This document shows positions 761 through 41,807 of a DNA stretch of 64,000 nt, one piece after another. The stretch's first letter is position 1. Each line of letters starts with the position of its first letter. A program made the translations under genes and the position numbers. The DNA is from Trametopsis cervina (Eukaryota; Basidiomycota; Agaricomycetes; Polyporales; Irpicaceae): assembly GCA_022385755.1 (NCBI GenBank), contig MU278354.1:822805-886804 (forward strand), in the 5' to 3' direction. The notes beneath the pieces are model-generated. The model did no database searches. It had not been told where the DNA came from and was given only the letters and a program-made list of their open reading frames with translations.

Positions 761-2014
761 CTACGCGAGCCCATCCCACGGCAACACGCCCGGAAAGACC
801 GCCGTGGGGTCATCCTCTGGACACCACGCAAGGAGGGGCGCGAGGGCGGGGGCGGAGAGCGCGTAGGGCGGGACGCGGTGATGCGGGTTGCGCGCGCGAC
901 GCTTGGAGGCGAGCGAGCCGTGACAGCCGTATGTGTCGTGCGTGAAGGGGGTGTAGCCGTGTGTCATCTGTAACCGTCAGGTTCAGTTAGCTTTCTTCAC
1001 AAAACACAATCTCGAACGGCAAGAAAACAGAGAAACACACCTCCCCATCCTTCGCCCCCTCCCCCTGCCCCTCAGCATCAACCCCTACATACACAAACCT
1101 CACACCAGGCCATCTCAGCGCAGCGCGATGTAGCCTCTCAAACCGCGGTTGCTTGAGCGCGAGCCCCACGACTGTGATGCGCGAGGGATAGTGTCCGCCT
1201 GTATGTTCGGCGAAACGGGCGAGGGCGAAGAGCAGGTTTTGGAGGGAGTCGAGCGCGTAGGGGTCTGTTGTTGTTCGGGTGTGGGGTGGGGGTAGGGAGG
1301 GGGTGTTAGGGGATGGGGAGGAGGAGAGGGGAGAAGAGGGAGAGGAGGAGAGGGAGGAGGAGGGGAAGAGGGCGAGGGCGAGTTGGTGGTATGAGGCTGC
1401 TTCCGTTAGCGGGGATGTCGGTTTTGTTTGACCCCTGCTTTTGCGTGAGCGTAGTATACGCTTAAGCGGTGAACGTGCTCACCCGCTGAAGACGAGGAGC
1501 GCGGTCGGGTCTTGCGCTGCGATCGCCACCCTGTCCAAGCGGTTCACTCACAACACACGCAGGGAATGGGATTCAGGGAGACTCACCCGCGTCGAACGTG
1601 CTCAGCATACGCCGCGGCCCGCGCATGCGCGTCGTCGCGCCCGAACGACTCCATCAGCCACGCGTCGGGGTCCGTCGCGTCCCCCGCGCGCGTACCAGTC
1701 CATATACCATGCGCGGGGACGAGGACGAGGTGTTGCAGCCGCGCGTCGGCTTCATCTACATGGTAGCCTAGCGTGTTGTTGCTTCCCAACTTCGGAGGTG
1801 TCTTCGGTGCGGAGGCATAGTAAGAGGAGGTAGGAGGGGAAGAGAACCACAACCGGAGGTTAAGCAGTACAGAAACAGCAGCGAGCGCTGCGAGGAGCGC
1901 AAGCCCGAGATTGGTGATGCGTGCGCGAGAGAGGAGGACCGCGCGTAAAGGGCGAGAGTGCCTTGTGCTTGTGTATCGGGAGGAGGAACGGAAGGAGACG
2001 GGCGTCGGGAGCAT
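761..2014 (-). CDS. DUF218 (YdcF-like) domain protein, N-terminally membrane-anchored
   Basis: Four exons (2014-1587, 1530-1483, 1434-1041, 967-761; introns 56, 48 and 73 nt, all GT-AG) give 358 residues in frame. A basic N-terminus is followed by one hydrophobic segment at about residues 35-52, which suggests a single membrane anchor. The DUF218 fold follows: LVLVPAHGIW, then the strand LLVFSGGQT split over two introns, TSPLTEAASY, and YALDSLQNLLFALARF, ending in TYGCHG and RRARNP blocks. I know these blocks from fungal DUF218 proteins. Bacterial YdcF binds S-adenosylmethionine; the role of the fungal branch is not settled. A Ser/Pro/Leu-rich low-complexity insert (about 1260-1380) interrupts the domain. 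Confidence 0.85.
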
Positions 2015-2089
2015 CGCGCGACGCGTACGGTGGCGGGATGCAATTATTGAGTGGGTGTGTGTGATCGTGTGCGAGGGGTGACTGTGACG

Positions 2090-5000
2090 CGCGTCAGGTC
2101 ACGGGATGTGACAGCCCGGTATGGTATGTTTGAATTTCGCTGATGTCATGACATGACATGACATGTATGTTTGCCTCGAATGTCATGTCGTTGTGTTGTG
2201 TCTCACGGTTCATTCTTACCACGAACGAAGGCTCTGAGTCGTCTCCAACTGAAAGCTTCCGGTGAATGGAATGTACAAGACTATGCACACTGGATATCTC
2301 TTCCTCCCTCTGTACCTGGAATCCTGGAACAATATACAAGGCGATGCATATCGGATATCTCACCCTCCCTCTGTTCCAGGATTCCAGGTACACACCGAAG
2401 CCGAGATAAACCTCGCAGCCTCAACATCATCTCGAAATTGCAGAAGCATTTACGTACGTGATATAAATGCGCGCTGTTGTTGTTTTGTGGTGGGTAACAG
2501 CGGTTCGTGGGTTGTCTGACAGATAGCTCGGTGGCATGTCATGATATGCATGTTGGCCCGAATACCACGTCTGCGTATCTCACGGTTTACGCTTGCGACA
2601 CGAATGAAGACGGACGTTACTGGGCTAGCAACAGAACATCACCAGCGGAGGGATACAGAAGACCACCCGCTCCTTCCAACCATCCTGGATATCTATCCCG
2701 TCCGTTGTTCCTGGTGCATACCGAAGATAAAACGCGCAGCCTGGAAATCTGTCGTGTCGAAATTATCGAAGCATCTATGTCCCTGATATGAATGCGCGCT
2801 TAGATTTTGTTGTGGGTAGCCGCGTTTCCTAGTGGGTGTGACAGCTTGGTATGTTTCTATCTCAAGTTCCAGCTAGATGTCAAGGACATAGTGTGCATGT
2901 TTGACTAGATCTTAATGCTTGTGGTGCGCGCTCGCTGCATGTACGGGGCAGCAATTACTGTTCTAAAGAATTAGGGCGTCGAAGAAACAATGTACAGCAC
3001 CTATGCATCCCTCCCTTTGTTCCCGAAACTTTGCCAGTGGTACACACGCAAAACGCAGGAAGCAAAACGCGCAGTCTAAACATCTCTCGAAATCGTCAAA
3101 GCATTTACGTACGTTATTTTCCGATTTTCCAGCTCCATGTCACGATATGACAAGCTTGTTTGACTAGATGATAGCTTACGCTGCGCGCTCGTAGCGTGCA
3201 TGGGAAGCCGCTGCGCCGCCGGAACAGAAAGTCGCAAGCGAGGCAATATCCGAGACGGATGCGTCTCCGTGTCTGTCCCTGGGATCCTGGTGCACATCGA
3301 AGATCCATGAAGTAGAACGCCCAGGTTCAATCGTTGGGAGCGTTGATGTGAATTAATTTGGGTGCTCAGGTGTGTTGTTGTGGGTTACACCGTTTCCTAG
3401 TTCATCTGACGAGAATCCCACAATTTCTGGCTGGTTGTTATGATATGACTTGTGTGGTTGACCAGATTTCAGTGCTCACGATAAACATATGGGAAGCCGT
3501 TACTTTGCCAGCAACACAAAGCTGCAAGTGGGGCAATATACAAGACAGATACATCTTCGTCCCTGTTCCTGGGATCCTGGTATACACCGAAGTCGCGCGA
3601 AACGAGATGTAAACCCCGACCCCCTCTCTCGATCGTCGGAGTACCTGATCGGAACACGCGCGTACTAGTGCATGTGCGTTGCGGGTTACAGTGTTTCCTC
3701 ATTTACTTGACAGGTATTTCTTGGCTTTCCTGCACGGTGTCATCGCATGCATGTATGTTCGACTTGATGTTATACTCAGAACCCAAGGCTAGGCTAAGCG
3801 GGTAGGAGAATACAGATGGTACTACGACGTACACGACGCACTGGGCATCTCCTCCTCTGTCCATGGCACACCCAGGCCAAAGGCGCGATCTCTCGGGTCG
3901 AGACGTTCGTCTCACCGACGTACGTGATTCAAATGCGCGCTCGGTTAGGCCGTTTCCTGGTTTATTTTATTTGACAGCCTAGTATGTTTCTATCGCAAGT
4001 TCTAGCATGGTGTCCTGATATGCTTGTTTTACTAGATGTTCTTAGTGCTCCCGATGCATGCCTGGACCACCTCACCTAGCAAGAGACGAGCGATACACAC
4101 GACGCATACGCATGTGCATGTGCTGGACATTCCCCCGTCTGCTCATACAGGTTACGGCAAGACGCGCAGTCTAGTCTGGTCCTCCGAGACCTTCGTACCA
4201 CCGGCGTACGTGATTCAGATGCGCGCTCGGGCGTTATTGTGGGCTACAGCGTTTCCTAGTCTATCTGACAGGTACTCTCACCAATATCCAGCTGGATGTC
4301 GCGATATGACTTGTATGGTTGACTCGGACTTGTATTGCTTAGTGTTCATGGGAAGCCGTGGCAACACAAAGCAATAAACAAGACGTGTGCGTCGTGCTCT
4401 TTGTTCCTGGGATGCTGGTATACATCGAAGTAGAACGCCGAGGCTCAATCGTCGGGAGTATTGACCTAAATCAATTTCGGTGCGTCGTTGTGGGTACAGT
4501 AACGGCGTTTCCTAGTTGAGGTGACACCCCGCCACCACGCTTCAATTTCCAGCTCGATATCAATCCCATGGCATGCATGTCCGATCTCTGCGCACAGCGG
4601 GCAATATGCGAGACGGATACGTCTTCGTCCCTGTCCCTGGGATCCTGGTATACATCGAAGATCTACGAAGCAAAACGTGCAGCCTGGGTATTTATCGACA
4701 TTTACTAAGTGCGCGCTCGTAAGTCGTTACTATCGGTAACGTCGTTTCCTGGTTTGTGTGACAGCTTGGTATGTCCGTATGTCGATGTCGTAGCATGCAT
4801 GTCTGACTTGATCTCATGCTTGGTGCTCATGGGAAGTCGTTACTCCGGTGGCAACAGGAAATTACTGGCGAAGCAATACACGAATCGGATACTTCCTCGC
4901 CCCTGCCTATAGGATCCTGGTACACATCGAAGATTACACGAAGTAGAACGCCGAGGTGCAATCGTCGGGAGTGTCGACGTTCATTAATTAATTTGGGTGC

Positions 5001-6960
5001 GCGGGTAGCTTCTGCTCACTGCGCGTTCGGGGCAGAGAGGGAGGCGCTGCAACACAAAGCTGCCGGCACGACAATACAACGCTGTCTATACTGGACATCT
5101 TGTCTTTGCTTCTCGCTGTGTTCCTGCGCAGCTTCGTTGTCTGGAGAGGCGAGATGGTAGAACATGATACGAATGCGCGTCCCGGTGTTCTGTGGTGGGT
5201 AAGAGCGTTTCCTGAACCGTATGACAGCCTCCTTATTGATTATTGATTTGCCAGCTTGGTGTCATGACAGGCATCTTGTGCACGCTACCGGAAAGCCGTT
5301 CCTCTGCTGCCTGGCAGCAGAACTTTGCAAGCGAGGCAATACACGAAACGGATGCATCGTGCTCCTTGTCCCTGGGATCCTAGCACGCACCGGAGATACG
5401 TGTTTTGAATGTCCCTCGGGTGTTTTGTGCGTTACAGCATTTTCTAGTTTATCTGACAGGTATCTCACAATTTTCTAGCTGGATGTTACGATATAACATA
5501 CGCGGTTGACTACATCTCATGCTTAGTGCTCATGATGCATGTATGGGAAGGCAGGTGACGCTCCGGTGGCAACAGGAGATTACTGGCGAGGCAAACGGAT
5601 ACACCTCCCTCCCTGTCCCTGGGACGCTAACATACATCGAAGATGCACTCAGCAGACCACCCAAGCTCAATCGTCGAGAACGCCCACACAAATTAATGTG
5701 GGTGTGCGCGTAAACGTGTTGTGAGTTACAGCATTTCCTCGTTCGTACAACAAGTGCGATATCAAGCTTCATTTCCAGCTCGATGTCATGCACGGGAAGC
5801 TGACACTCTGCTGACAACACAAAGCTCCAAGCAAGGCAACATGCAGGACGCAAATATCCCGCTCCCTATTCCTGGGATCCTAGCATACATCGAAGATTGT
5901 ACGAAGCAAGACAGGTAGGCCGGACATGTTTCGAGATCGTCGGTGCAATTAATTTGTGTGGTATAGGTGATGAAGTTTCCTGGGATGCATGACAAGCTTC
6001 AATTTCGAGCTTGATATCCCCTCCACAACACATCTTCTCTATCAGCTCACCAAGCACTTTTTCCGCGCAGGGCAATAACCACGCCAAAACCGTCGTGCTC
6101 CCAGTTCCTGGGGCCCTACAGTAGCACAAATCGAAGATTGCAGTCGCGCGAAGGCGAAGGCGTCGGGTGGCGACGTAGGGCATGACGCGCGCGAGGCATA
6201 AATTAATTCTGTGCGCGCTTAGGTGGCGGGATAGGAAAGGACGTTGCCAAGTACAGTTCGCGTTGGAATCTATTTCGAGCCAGCCCGATCGTCATGTCAT
6301 GTCAAGGGTGTTCTGCTCGATCACCCGTCGGGGGCATTGTATGACGCTCGCGTCTCGGGAGGCGGGGCTCTGTTAGCTGCGCGCTTGGACGCCGAGATTG
6401 GTGAGGACGTTGCCTACTGTAGTGCGTATTTGGGTTTACTTTCGGCACGACGTTCATGTCCTCGGACCAGATTTTCAGTTCAACATAGCACCACAGGGAG
6501 GGAGACGCTGCAACGCGAGCAGTAAAGCTGCCGGCGGGAGAACAAACAACGCTATCCATACCTGTCAGTGCTTCTCGCTCTGTGTTTGCGCAGCCTTGGT
6601 ATCTGGCGAGTCAAGACAGACGGCAGAAGCGGTTCGTTACGTACGTGATATAAATGCGCGCTTGGATGTGGTGGGTTCTGTTGTTGGAGTGTCTGACAGC
6701 GCGGTATGTTCTACATCTCAGCTTCCGTCTTGATGTTTGTTTGAGTGGATCTTAGGTTCGGGGCTTAGTATGCATTCGAAGCCTGTGTGTGGAGCCATAG
6801 ACACAAGGACTGGACATCCCTCTTATGTTCATAGCAAGACGCACGAAGCGCGAAGCAGAACCCGCCGAATGGCTATCTATCGAGTCAAAGCCGAGACGGT
6901 CGGAATCACCGAACGTACGTACGTACACGAATCATGAATCACGAATCACGCCTGCCCGAA
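2090..6960. repeat. degenerate long-unit tandem repeat array, about 17 units of ~250-330 bp
   Basis: The stretch is filled by diverged direct copies in one orientation. A CCTGGGATCCTGG...CATCGAAG block, or a decayed version of it, ends near 2400, 2726, 3050, 3302, 3592, 3875, 4150, 4430, 4660, 4932, 5140, 5395, 5645, 5895, 6136, 6610 and 6840. Between these, other blocks recur in fixed order: GTTTCCTAG...TCTGACAG (near 2827, 3400, 3692, 3951, 4252, 4507, 4744, 5207, 5442, 5731, 5974), CCAGCTNGATGTCATG, GACTAGAT, CATGGGAAGCCGT, GCAACACAAAGCTGCAAG, and a unit end that is either TACGTGATATAAATGCGCGC or an AATTAATTTGGGTGCG variant. A 25-bp version of the first unit end is identical at 2451-2475 and 6638-6662. 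No open frame persists through the units. I cannot assign it to a known element. Confidence 0.85.
2144..2167. repeat. short ATGAC/CATGA pentanucleotide repeat
   Basis: Consecutive CATGA units sit at the left edge of the long tandem array. They may be a locally expanded copy of the GTCATGACATG block that occurs inside the array units. Confidence 0.7.
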
Positions 6961-8461
6961 CTGACTGGCTGACGTTCGTACAGCGCATCTTACTCATTCC
7001 TCACTCAGCGTTCACCGTGGCAGCGTACCTCAGCGTCGGCGGCTGCGGCTGCGACTTGTCAGTGGAACCCACCCCGATAACCCTGTCCCTGCGTTCTGGC
7101 CCCTGCGCCCTTGTTGACGGGTTTCCACGGATGTAAGCCTCGCAGGGAGGGATGCCACGATGTACGCCTCCCACGGAGCCGTCCACCCTCCGCGTCGCGA
7201 ACGCCACGACGTGCCTGTACTTCCTTTCTTGATGGATGCGCACGTCCCGGGCGGACCGCGTCAACACCATCTTCTGCCAGCTTCTGTGGCTGGCCAGTGC
7301 ACTCGAAATCGACGGAGCGCCGGGTGCGTCGAGAGATCTCGCTCCCATGGCGTGTCACCCGCAGCCGAGTACTGTACGTCGGTCGGGGTCAATGCTCGCC
7401 GCGCTCGTCTGCTGTCTACCCAGCGTCAGAATGGAAGGGGACAAGGGCCCTGAAGATTATGCGAGCATGGATTATGGATTATGCGAGCATGCCGAGACGA
7501 TCTGCGCTGAGCTAGCAGGGGCGTGCGGTATGCTGCCTGCTCATGCTGATTGTGATGGTCCCTGCCTGTAGCGTGTGCTGCTGCGGTGGAGAAGAAGCTC
7601 GCTGGCTTTGCGTTTCGCCGGGATAGGGTACGAGGAACGAGGACGCTCAACATGCTCAAGCGTATGATAAACGTATGTATGTTTTCGCGTTCCATGTTCT
7701 CTCTGTCGTCATCATCGCCATCATCGTCTTCGGGGCCGCCGCTCACCGTTCATCGCAGGATAGGCATCGGGTGTCGGGCGTCGAGTCGAGCGGACGGACG
7801 TGGGTGGCACAATAAATCAAGGGTACACCGAATCTCCGTGCGCACGCCCCGACGAGATCGCGCAGCTGACGGGCGACAAACACCATTCGTCTCCCCTTCG
7901 CACACCGATTGGACGTCCGTCTGGTGATCCCGGCGATTATCCTGGCATCGAAGCACACGCATCCAAGAATTCGAAGAGCCTGTCAGATCACGCATCGCAC
8001 ATCACACATCATCTCATCTCATCCACCTCACCCTCCCGTCTGTCTCTCCCGCAGTACCCCGTTATTCATTAATGAATTCATTGTTTGGATTGTATACACC
8101 CGCCGACGTGCCTGTCTGTTCCTCTGTCCACCAGAGCTCTTCCGCCTACATCCCTGATCGGGCTTATCATCCCCCGCTGAACTCTCCCTCTCCTCGCCTG
8201 GGCTCGCTCGATATCGAATCAGAATTTATCATCATTTCGCGCTCGGTCCATGGGAAACAACACAACCGCGCGAACTCGAATGCAAAACAAAATTCTTTGT
8301 TCGTTGTTCGTCCGTTTCCTGTTTCCTGGTTCCTTATAACTACTGTGGCCCATCAGGAGGAGGGATGCTGTGGCCACCCCCTCCGCCCCCTCTCCCCATT
8401 TCACCTTTCCCTACCGTAGCTCGTCCACGCCCTCGCCCACCCACTCACATTCGTTTCAAGC
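6961..8461. other. long 5' region of the GT2 glycosyltransferase, no gene supported
   Basis: About 1.5 kb between the array and the GT2 start codon. Short frames exist on both strands, but none shows conserved protein features or splice structure. It probably contains the GT2 promoter and leader. Near 7700-7740 there is a short (TCATCATCG)-like run. No tRNA or other RNA gene was seen. Confidence 0.5.
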
Positions 8462-11400
8462 ATGGACTACGACGCGCACGATGCGCTGTTGCATCATATC
8501 TTCAGACAGGTACGTGTTGCCCTCATCCCCCCTGCATCCATATCCCTCCATCCTTCCATCTCCTCCCCTTTCCTCGCCTCCTCCTTTGCTTTCCCTCCCC
8601 CTTCCCTCCCCTCCCCTTCCATTCCCCTCACCTCCCCCCTCCGCCCTTCCCCTCCCCTCCCGCTTTCACTGTCCCCACCCCCTCCCCGCGTCCTTTCCTC
8701 TTCCTCTTCCCCCAATCCCTCCCCTTCCCCTCCCCCGTGTTCGCGCTCCTGATCGTTCGCTTACACCCCCTTACTTCCTCTCACTTACACGTCGCTTACA
8801 CTCCCCAGACGCAAGGCGACGCCTGGTTCAAGCCCTCCGAAGAGAACGTGCACGCCGGCGTATGCTTGCGCGTGTCCAACGGCCGTTTCCGCGTCTTCCC
8901 CTACGAGAACCGGCACCTCGAGCCCTTCGAGGCCGCCGTGCGCGCGCTGAACCCGGTTGTTGCGGTTAAGATTCGCAGCGCGGCGATACATGCTGCGTTG
9001 GCTGCTGTGTGAGTTCCTCTTCCTTATTTTATTTTATTGTTTCCTCTCCGCCTTTTCCCCCTGCTTTTTCCTTTCTGCCCCTCTGCCCTTTTGTGATTTT
9101 TGTGTATTTTTTGTGTGTTTGGGAGAACGAAAGCTAACAAATATTCGTGAATACAGTCGAGAAGATGAAGACGCGGTCTACCTCGACACAGATACGCGCA
9201 TCCAGATCCTCGACACCATCGGCTACCTCCCGCGCGCCGATAAGGAGCAGTGCGGGGCTTTCATCGTAAGTGTCCCCATCTCCTCTCCTCCCTCTTTCCC
9301 GTTCTCCCTCTTCCCTCCCTCCACCCCTCTTTTTCTTCTTTCTTCATCGCATAAAAACTCGGCTGACGCCTCGTAGCGCGACGAACGCGTGCTAATAGTC
9401 TGGGCCTACAACCTCGACACAATCATCGCCACCTGCCGCGACTTCGAAGACAAGCTCATCGCGCTCGTCTGGGCCCAACGCTCCCTCGCCCTCTCTGCCT
9501 CCCATCCTTCCTCCCATCCCTCCTCGCACTCTCCCTCTACCGCCAACCTCGGGAGCGCCACTAATTTGACCGAGAAACCCCCCGCTTCTTCTTCTCCGGA
9601 AGACGTGGCAAACGCGCTCAAAGAGCGCGAAGAGAAGAGGGACAAAGCGAGCAAGAACAAGAACAAGAAAGCAAAGGCGAGATCGTGTGCGCTCTTTGGG
9701 TACTTCGTCTCGAGCCGCGCGGACGTCGAGCAGCACGCGGCCGCGGGCGCGGGAGGGGCGATGGGGGAGAAGGGGCAGCAGCGCCGCCCGATGCGGTTGT
9801 TTGCGCCGCTGTATGGCGGGTTGACGCTTGCTATGGCTACCTGTATGTCCATTCCCCTCCTCTTCCTTTTTTCCTTTATTGTGTTTGAAAAGAGGGAAAG
9901 AGAAAGAGAACGCTGATGCGGGGACGGTGCAGATTTTGTGGGCAGTGGAGTCGCTACGCTCCTCGAAGAGTCCGTGCTCGACGGCTCGTTGACGAGGTTT
10001 TGGTTGTGTGTGACTACGCCGTTTTTGTTCTGCGTCTCGCTCGTACGTCCTCCCCCTCTTTATTTTAATTCAGTTCTCAAGGATTGTGCTGACACCCGCC
10101 CAGTTTTTCTGCTCGCAGATAATCGGAGACGTCGCCATGATGTAAGCCCCCTTTCCTTCCCTCCCAAAAAAAAGAGGAAGCAGACATGGTACTGACGTAC
10201 GATGTGATGATGGTGACAGAGTGGGCCCGGTAGCGCAGTACCACGAGAACTCGAAATACTACTCTGCGATCCCCGCCCCGCCCGACCGCCTCGTCGACAT
10301 GAACCTCCCGCATGTTACTGTTGAGATGCCGGTTTATAAGGAGAGTTTGCAGGAGACTATGTGAGTCCATCCATCACTGAAGCCGAGAGGCTGCCATATT
10401 GATATTCGGCGCTAGCGCGCCCTCGGTATACTCGCTCAAGAAAGCGATGCAGACGTACGCGCGCCAAGGCGGGACCTCCTCCATCTTCGTGCACGACGAC
10501 GGCCTCCAGCTGCTCCCCGAACCCGAACGCGCCGCCCGCATCGCCTTCTACGCAGACAACAACATCGGGTGGGTCGCCCGCCCGCCACACTCCTCCGCGC
10601 CCGACGGGTACAAACGCGCAGGCCGGTTCAAAAAAGCGTCCAACATGAACTTCGGCCTCGCGCTCTCCCTAAAGCTCGAGAAACACCTCGCGGCGATCCT
10701 AGCCGCCGAGGGCGAGGGCGCGGGAGATGATGATGATGGGGAGGAGGACGCGGAGGAACGCGCGCTTGCGCTTGCGATTGAGGAGACGTATGAGGAGAGC
10801 GGACGCCGCGTGAGGCCGTGGGCGCACAACGCGCGTGCGCTGCGCGTCGGCGCCATCATCCTGCTCGTCGACTCCGACACCGTCGTCCCCGAAGACTGTT
10901 TCCGCGACGCCGCGCGCGAATTATCCGCGTGCCCGTCCGTCGCGATCCTGCAGCACGAGTCCGACGTCGTCCAAGTCGCGCACCACTACTTCGAGAACGG
11001 GATCGCGCATTTCACGCGCCGTGTCAACCGGAGCATCTCGTTCGGGACTGCGAACGGGGAGGTCGCCCCGTTCGTGGGGCATAATGCGTTTTTGCGGTGG
11101 GAGGCGCTGCAGGATGCTGCGTTTGTGGATGCGGCGGATGGGGAGAGGAAGATATGGAGCGAGGCGAATGTTAGTGAGGATTTTGATATGGCGTTGAGGT
11201 TGCAGCTTGCGGGGTATATTATAAGATGGGTCACGTATTCGGATGGCGGGTTCAAGGAGGGCGTGTCGCTTACGTGCGATGATGAGCTGAATCGCTGGCA
11301 GAAGTATTCGTATGGTGAGTGCATTCTACACTCTTGCATAGTGCGCAGGAGCTGAAGGGGATGGTGGGTAGGATGCAACGAGCTGATATTCAACCCGCTC

Positions 11401-35256: not shown

Positions 35257-41807
<6,551 letters not shown>

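What the first reader, a model, noticed from the sequence alone, without database searches (positions are those of the whole stretch)
2090..6960. Degenerate tandem array of ~250-330 bp units with two alternating unit ends
At least seventeen diverged copies of one unit fill nearly 4.9 kb of otherwise gene-free DNA, all in one orientation, with block order kept. The copies fall into two subtypes by their end: one with a TATAAA-containing GTGATATAAATGCGCGC block (near 2455, 2785, 3920, 4205, 5165, 6645), one with an AATTAATTTGGGTGCG block (near 3350, 4475, 4985, 5690, 5945, 6200). Some blocks decay while others stay near-identical over 4 kb, which suggests constraint or repeated conversion rather than neutral drift. 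I know no fungal element with this structure.
Basis: seen in the sequence. Interest (0 to 1): 0.8.

Follow-up and report, generated by a model that had tools for sequence, protein, structure and literature searches.

The report
Fossil tandem repeat array, single locus
A stretch of about 4.8 kb beside a gene in a wood-rotting fungus is an old, one-off tandem array of some 17-18 badly decayed copies of a roughly 270-bp sequence; it is real, but it looks mostly like an eroding relic rather than a new kind of working element.

Summary
The array is real: 17 secure units and one doubtful, all on the + strand, between 2103 and 6924. RPB1 matches Trametopsis cervina at 100%. DNA and pattern searches of the genome find no second locus. 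The array starts about 90 bp upstream of the ATG of an intact DUF218-type gene. I found no coding, RNA-structure, transposon, rDNA or RIP signal. Two claims fail or weaken. The end types do not alternate (7 runs in 12, P = 0.61). The 'conserved blocks' are mostly near what uniform decay gives: best 12-column window 0.702 against 0.672, 9 of 60 simulations as high. Most likely a low-copy satellite-like array that grew by unequal exchange, froze, and decayed nearly neutrally. A multimerised upstream regulatory element under weak constraint is not excluded. No related species' DNA could be reached.

The parts
2103..6924 (+). whole array: first to last base matched by the unit profiles
   Evidence: self-BLAST
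2077..2488 (+). unit u01 (cut point at 2077 is arbitrary; first profile match at 2103), T-type end; holds an internal 61-bp duplication (2270-2392) and an imperfect palindrome (arms 2295-2331 / 2372-2408)
   Evidence: leave-one-out 72.2 bits after one 61-bp copy was left out
2489..2810 (+). unit u02, T-type end
   Evidence: leave-one-out 119.9 bits
2811..3103 (+). unit u03
   Evidence: 98.4 bits
3104..3378 (+). unit u04, N-type end
   Evidence: 155.2 bits
3379..3679 (+). unit u05
   Evidence: 155.0 bits
3680..3938 (+). unit u06, T-type end
   Evidence: 71.7 bits
3939..4237 (+). unit u07, T-type end
   Evidence: 82.8 bits
4238..4493 (+). unit u08, N-type end
   Evidence: 136.8 bits
4494..4730 (+). 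unit u09
   Evidence: 118.7 bits
4731..4999 (+). unit u10, N-type end
   Evidence: 156.1 bits
5000..5193 (+). unit u11, short, T-type end; closest to u17
   Evidence: 26.2 bits; pair score with u17 95
5194..5425 (+). unit u12
   Evidence: 101.6 bits
5426..5719 (+). unit u13, N-type end
   Evidence: 157.0 bits
5720..5961 (+). unit u14, N-type end
   Evidence: 116.1 bits
5962..6221 (+). unit u15, N-type end
   Evidence: 31.4 bits
6222..6398 (+). unit u16, doubtful (truncated or not a unit)
   Evidence: 5.7 bits leave-one-out, near the background best of 3.3
6399..6666 (+). unit u17, T-type end
   Evidence: 41.7 bits
6667..6964 (+). unit u18, last
   Evidence: 20.9 bits
2450..2475 (+). 26-bp stretch identical to 6637-6662 (T-type end block of u01 and of u17)
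   Evidence: 2 of 60 simulations as long or longer
6637..6662 (+). second copy of the 26-bp identity (T-type end of u17)
761..2014 (-). left neighbour: intact gene for a 358-aa DUF218-type protein, spliced by eye in four exons; its ATG (2014) is 89 positions from the first array match (2103)
   Evidence: the spliced reading equals the deposited Trametopsis cervina protein BDW22DRAFT_1327305 at 100% over 358 aa; UniRef names several relatives DUF218 domain-containing; Pfam itself gave no match at E<=0.01; ends read
8365..11355 (+). right neighbour: glycosyltransferase family 2 gene with DUF7928 (exon span seen; true start and end not determined)
   Evidence: PF25550 and PF13632

Best explanation
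A relic of a low-copy, satellite-like tandem array. A roughly 270-bp non-coding sequence next to the start of the DUF218-type gene was multiplied in place by unequal exchange (or a similar slippage) into 17-18 head-to-tail copies, with two end variants arising as subfamilies on the way. Exchange then stopped, plausibly because the copies had become too different to recombine (inference from general knowledge), and the units have since decayed by substitutions and indels at a nearly uniform rate. Shown: tandem homology, orientation, no second locus found, no whole-unit recent homogenisation, decay close to uniform with mild rate variation, no coding or RNA-structure signal. Inferred: unequal exchange as the growth step, divergence as the brake, and lack of function in most units. 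The left gene's promoter probably lies in or against the first units (inferred from position), so some units may still carry its signals.
For: 63 same-strand against 3 inverted self-matches. No second locus in 29.4 Mb: BLAST of the whole array returns itself and one inverted match inside itself; a 318-nt consensus gives 15 of 15 matches inside the array; three block patterns with up to 3 mismatches give 14 places, 12 inside the array and 2 elsewhere at 3 mismatches, against one hit of the backward controls. These searches score only best candidates and skip common words. Tree with tips of 0.13-0.71 on internal branches of 0.01-0.21, most of them weakly supported (26-92%). Block statistics mostly near simulated uniform decay, alpha about 5-6. 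Units near the array edges fit the family profile less well (bits per nt against distance to edge, Spearman 0.53, p 0.025; raw bits 0.40, p 0.10), as expected for an array that once exchanged in its middle. No coding signal: stop-free lengths as in shuffles, gap lengths not multiples of three (440 of 1627), no clear 3-base periodicity. No RNA structure: mean fold z 0.33 and 0.05 on the two strands, lowest single value -2.7 for the palindrome-bearing u01, and 0 predicted consensus pairs. No credible Rfam or tRNA match. CpG o/e 1.09 and ordinary RIP indices.
Against: Rate variation among columns is greater than in any of 40 uniform simulations. Column variance, the fifth-longest shared word and lag-1 autocorrelation are reached by 1, 1 and 3 of 60 simulations, and the 26-bp identity between u01 and u17 by 2 of 60. 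A simulation set with slightly lower mean identity leans further toward conservation (see Tried and rejected). The simulations use a tree inferred from the same units, ad hoc indel settings and a scale chosen to match identity. Keeping about 18 copies at mean pairwise identity of about 53% in a 29-Mb genome is not what fast deletion of junk would predict (general expectation, recalled). No relative's DNA was available, so the age is not measured.
Confidence: 0.7

Rival explanations
1. A multimerised upstream regulatory element of the DUF218-type gene (or of the divergent pair): each unit carries protein-binding sites, multiplication changed expression, and weak selection slows decay of some blocks.
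For: The array begins about 90 bp upstream of the left gene's ATG and fills about 4.8 kb of the divergent spacer. Rate variation beyond uniform decay is real, and column variance and the fifth-longest shared word are each reached by 1 of 60 simulations. Tandem enhancer units are known upstream of a fungal gene (126-bp x5 at PdCYP51A, passages of PMC8471628).
Against: The best conserved blocks are within simulated uniform decay (9 of 60 and 5 of 60 runs as high), the most conserved window is not in the end blocks, and TATAAA is kept in 2 of 6 T ends. No expression data.
Confidence: 0.17
2. Internal tandem repeats left from a transposable element or from satellite DNA carried by one.
For: Tandem sub-repeats inside elements are known in general (recalled). 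The genome has reverse-transcriptase elements (31 RVT_1 matches).
Against: No second copy found in the genome. No inverted or direct repeats bounding the array among those listed (9 inverted pairs and the 20 largest of 40 direct families). None of the 10 longest stop-free stretches of the array has a Pfam match above cut-off. The two RVT_1 matches on this contig lie about 383 and 396 kb away.
Confidence: 0.08
3. A cluster of small non-coding RNA genes, each with its own TATA box.
For: TATAAA-containing ends in two units and head-to-tail arrangement.
Against: No Rfam match at gathering score; the single match up to E 5 is a microRNA model at E 0.78, 21.9 bits against a cut-off of 93.5. No consensus structure, mean fold z near zero on both strands, TATAAA absent from 4 of 6 T ends and all 6 N ends.
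Confidence: 0.03

Closest known systems
Low-copy / euchromatic satellite DNA arrays that escape concerted evolution (review PMC5615363, passages read)
   Same: Head-to-tail units of some hundred bp, subfamilies, more diverged units toward the array ends, low copy number with little homogenisation.
   Different: No other copies found in the genome, and copies far more diverged (mean 53% identity) than is usual for a recognised satellite (the last point is recalled).
Tandem enhancer units upstream of a fungal gene (PdCYP51A 126-bp x5; passages of PMC8471628)
   Same: Multi-copy units directly upstream of one protein-coding gene.
   Different: There the repeats are linked to overexpression; here the units are heavily decayed, 17-18 in number, about 270 bp, with no expression evidence.
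rDNA intergenic spacer subrepeats
   Same: Degenerate tandem units in non-coding DNA (recalled).
   Different: No rRNA gene match in the window; the flanks are protein-coding genes.

Membership tests
satellite DNA array | head-to-tail units of one family in one orientation | tested here: met
   63 of 66 self-match rows same strand; 17 of 18 units above background
satellite DNA array | homogenised copies (concerted evolution) | tested here: not met
   mean pairwise identity 53%, long terminal branches, no recent whole-unit copies; short patches of 89-94% exist
satellite DNA array | further arrays or dispersed copies in the genome | tested here: not met
   only this locus by DNA and pattern search of 29.4 Mb; profile search of 200 kb of flank: 0 matches with either model.
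tandem upstream enhancer | repeats lie directly upstream of one gene | tested here: met
   first match at 2103, ATG of the 761-2014 gene at 2014
tandem upstream enhancer | unit or copy number changes expression | not testable with these tools
   no expression data
tandem upstream enhancer | conserved binding-site blocks in the units | tested here: inconclusive
   mild rate variation; block-window statistics within simulated uniform decay, some other statistics beyond it
transposable element | other copies, terminal repeats or element proteins | tested here: not met
non-coding RNA gene cluster | conserved secondary structure or match to a known family | tested here: not met

The most novel reading that the evidence does not exclude
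The array is a multimerised, sequence-constrained upstream control region: some short blocks (GTACACATCGAA-like, GCGTTTCCT, TGCGCG) are kept by selection across 17-18 units for a very long time while the unit frame decays, and the array length itself is retained between the divergent genes.
Probability: 0.13. Interest if true: 0.55.

Novelty: new member of a known kind. Interest (0 to 1): 0.27.

Why it matters
If the plain reading holds, it is a clear example of a low-copy tandem array frozen after divergence in a compact fungal genome, beyond the reach of a standard repeat finder: within the array Tandem Repeats Finder reported only a 61-bp repeat. It also shows by simulation that eye-visible 'conserved blocks' in diverged repeats need a decay model before they are read as constraint. 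If the regulatory reading held, it would be an unusually large and old multimerised fungal promoter region.

Tried and rejected
Coding repeats: rejected (stop-free lengths, gap lengths, mismatch periodicity, Pfam). The ten stretches given to Pfam are the ten longest of 31 listed, leaving out the one that belongs to the left gene's exon; the one weak row, Ntox30 at E 0.12 and 13.1 bits against a cut-off of 25, is chance. Small RNA genes and structured RNA: rejected. Splice-like motifs (GTACGT ... CTGACAG) as the reason for the junction block: considered by reading only and dropped, because the branch-point-like site lies against the AG and GTACGT is found at only 6 of 18 unit ends. RIP or CpG decay: no sign; the two retroelement stretches meant as a depleted control were not depleted either (CpG o/e 0.99, 0.98), so that control says nothing. 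Higher-order repeats: weak signal only (diagonal coherence r 0.19, p 0.037; neighbours slightly more alike, rho -0.20, p 0.03). Origin of the unit from the right spacer (6900-8800): best matches 2.4 and 1.3 bits.

Simulation sets. Tree scale 1.0-1.15 (72 runs) gave mean identities of 0.42-0.47, far below the observed 0.535, and were set aside as uncalibrated; there 0 of 72 runs reach the observed 12-column window or count of conserved columns. One search had three sets: scale 0.72 (20 runs, identity 0.551): 1 of 20 as high for the 12-column window, 6 of 20 for the 20-column window, 9 of 20 for conserved columns; scale 0.78 (20 runs, identity 0.525): 0, 0 and 1 of 20; scale 0.75 (60 runs, identity 0.532, closest): 9, 5 and 18 of 60. 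The verdict rests on the last set; the 0.78 set leans more toward constraint. A mutation bias by base context was not modelled.

Literature: seven searches. Among the rows listed (10 of 20, 15 of 60, 10 of 10, 4 of 4, 8 of 72, none held, 8 of 847) no title or abstract start describes this array; the unlisted papers were not seen. Only PMC5615363, PMC8471628 and PMC4352252 were opened, and only passages of them. Not tried: synteny by locus tags of relatives; a third protein search.
Full report
What was checked. The window is positions 822805-886804 of contig 7 (1,306,329 bp) of a 29.4-Mb, 59-contig genome. The RPB1 exon at 37856-41335 is 100% identical, over the 500 residues searched, to the Trametopsis cervina protein, and the spliced left neighbour is 100% identical to T. 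cervina BDW22DRAFT_1327305 over 358 residues. So this is T. cervina, a white-rot polypore, or a near-identical strain.

The array is real. Self-comparison gives 63 same-strand and 3 inverted rows. I cut 18 units at a shared block. Profiles built from 17 units find the left-out unit with 20.9 to 157 bits in 17 of 18 cases; u16 scores 5.7, and the best score in 259 kb of neighbouring DNA plus a shuffled array is 3.3. Models of the unit junction and body hit 18 and 18 places in the window, all on the + strand between 2103 and 6924, and 0 places in 200 kb of flank with either model. Fifteen and 16 of those window places are training sequences, so the leave-one-out test is the more independent evidence. 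Among 104 overlapping 5-kb tiles across 264 kb, 2 have more than 1000 bp in same-strand self-matches, and both lie on the array.

They do not alternate: the order TTNTTNNTNNNT has 7 runs, as expected by chance (P = 0.61). They look like subfamily marks: the six N-type units (u04, u08, u10, u13, u14, u15) fall, with u05, in one group of the tree, and no T-type unit falls in it, but support is only 53% and the end block was part of the alignment. TATAAA is present in only two T ends.

No second locus was found. The whole array, a 318-nt consensus and three block patterns with up to 3 mismatches match only this locus in the genome, apart from two 3-mismatch hits to one pattern (C10 and C14), where the backward control pattern gives one hit.

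It is not a gene, an RNA or an element that I can name. The longest stop-free stretch is within shuffle expectation, gaps are not multiples of three and mismatches show no clear period of three. Ten stop-free stretches have no Pfam match above cut-off. Rfam and ARAGORN give nothing credible, consensus folding predicts no pair, and single-unit folding energies are ordinary on average on both strands, with u01 at -2.7 on the minus strand, where it holds a palindrome. No bounding terminal repeats were listed. CpG is not depleted and RIP indices are ordinary.

Is there constraint? I simulated uniform substitution plus indels on the tree inferred from the units, realigned each set with the same program, and compared. 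In the best-calibrated set (60 runs, mean identity 0.532 against 0.535 observed) the best 12-column window was as high in 9 of 60, the best 20-column window in 5 of 60, the number of columns conserved at 85% in 18 of 60 and the longest shared word in 2 of 60 runs. Against my reading, the fifth-longest shared word was reached in 1 of 60, column variance in 1 of 60 and lag-1 autocorrelation in 3 of 60, and a set with slightly lower identity leans further that way (see Tried and rejected). The gamma model gains 11.0 log units against at most 7.2 in 40 simulations, with alpha 5.8 against at least 8.5. Mild rate variation is therefore real, while strikingly conserved blocks are not established. Base-context mutation bias, which I did not model, could also produce mild variation.

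How it most likely arose. The tree has internal branches of 0.01-0.21 and tips of 0.13-0.71, and the units nearer the edges fit the family less well (Spearman 0.53 for bits per base, p 0.025; 0.40, p 0.10 for raw bits). A review states, in passages read, that exchange acts better on long arrays, that low-copy remnants can escape homogenisation, and that array ends hold divergent variants (PMC5615363). I infer growth by unequal exchange next to the left gene, followed by a freeze and near-uniform decay. No recent whole-unit homogenisation is visible; short patches of 89-94% over 34-61 nt between units could be conversion tracts or chance and were not tested.

Setting. The first profile match (2103) is about 90 bp upstream of the ATG (2014) of the intact DUF218-type gene on the minus strand, and about 1.4 kb without unit matches above chance separates the array from the first exon-like stretch of the GT2 gene. 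The left gene's promoter therefore probably lies in or against the first units, which keeps the regulatory rival open. Tandem enhancer units upstream of a fungal gene are documented (PMC8471628 passages).

Verdict. A real, unusual-looking but probably ordinary relic: a single-locus, decayed tandem array. What is not settled is whether a few short blocks are under weak constraint; comparison with related species would decide that, and no related fungal DNA could be reached here.

Noticed in passing
window 2270-2408: Inside u01 a 61-bp duplication at 79% matches; 37-bp arms here (2295-2331 / 2372-2408) are 84% complementary, an imperfect palindrome.
   Followed up: partly
window 2450-2475 and 6637-6662: 26 bp identical between the ends of u01 and u17, 4.2 kb apart, in an array averaging 53% identity; 2 of 60 neutral simulations do as well.
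   Followed up: partly
window 3533-3593 / 4601-4661, 3899-3944 / 4185-4230, 4843-4876 / 5561-5594: Local patches of 89-94% identity over 34-61 nt between units that are otherwise much more diverged; possible conversion tracts.
   Followed up: no
window 37856-41335: RPB1 main exon; the 42-bp tandem repeat at 41135-41253 lies in the part that encodes the C-terminal heptads.
   Followed up: no
window 8552-8736: Long CT-rich tract just upstream of the DUF7928 part of the GT2 gene.
   Followed up: no
C7:932801-940300 (flank loci L041-L042): The only other same-strand self-similar stretch among the 264 kb tiled (7 pairs, about 420-470 bp).
   Followed up: no
contig 7: The contig is 1,306,329 bp here but the protein database lists 1,307,065 bp for the contig of the matching T. 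cervina proteins, so the two assemblies may differ slightly.
   Followed up: no
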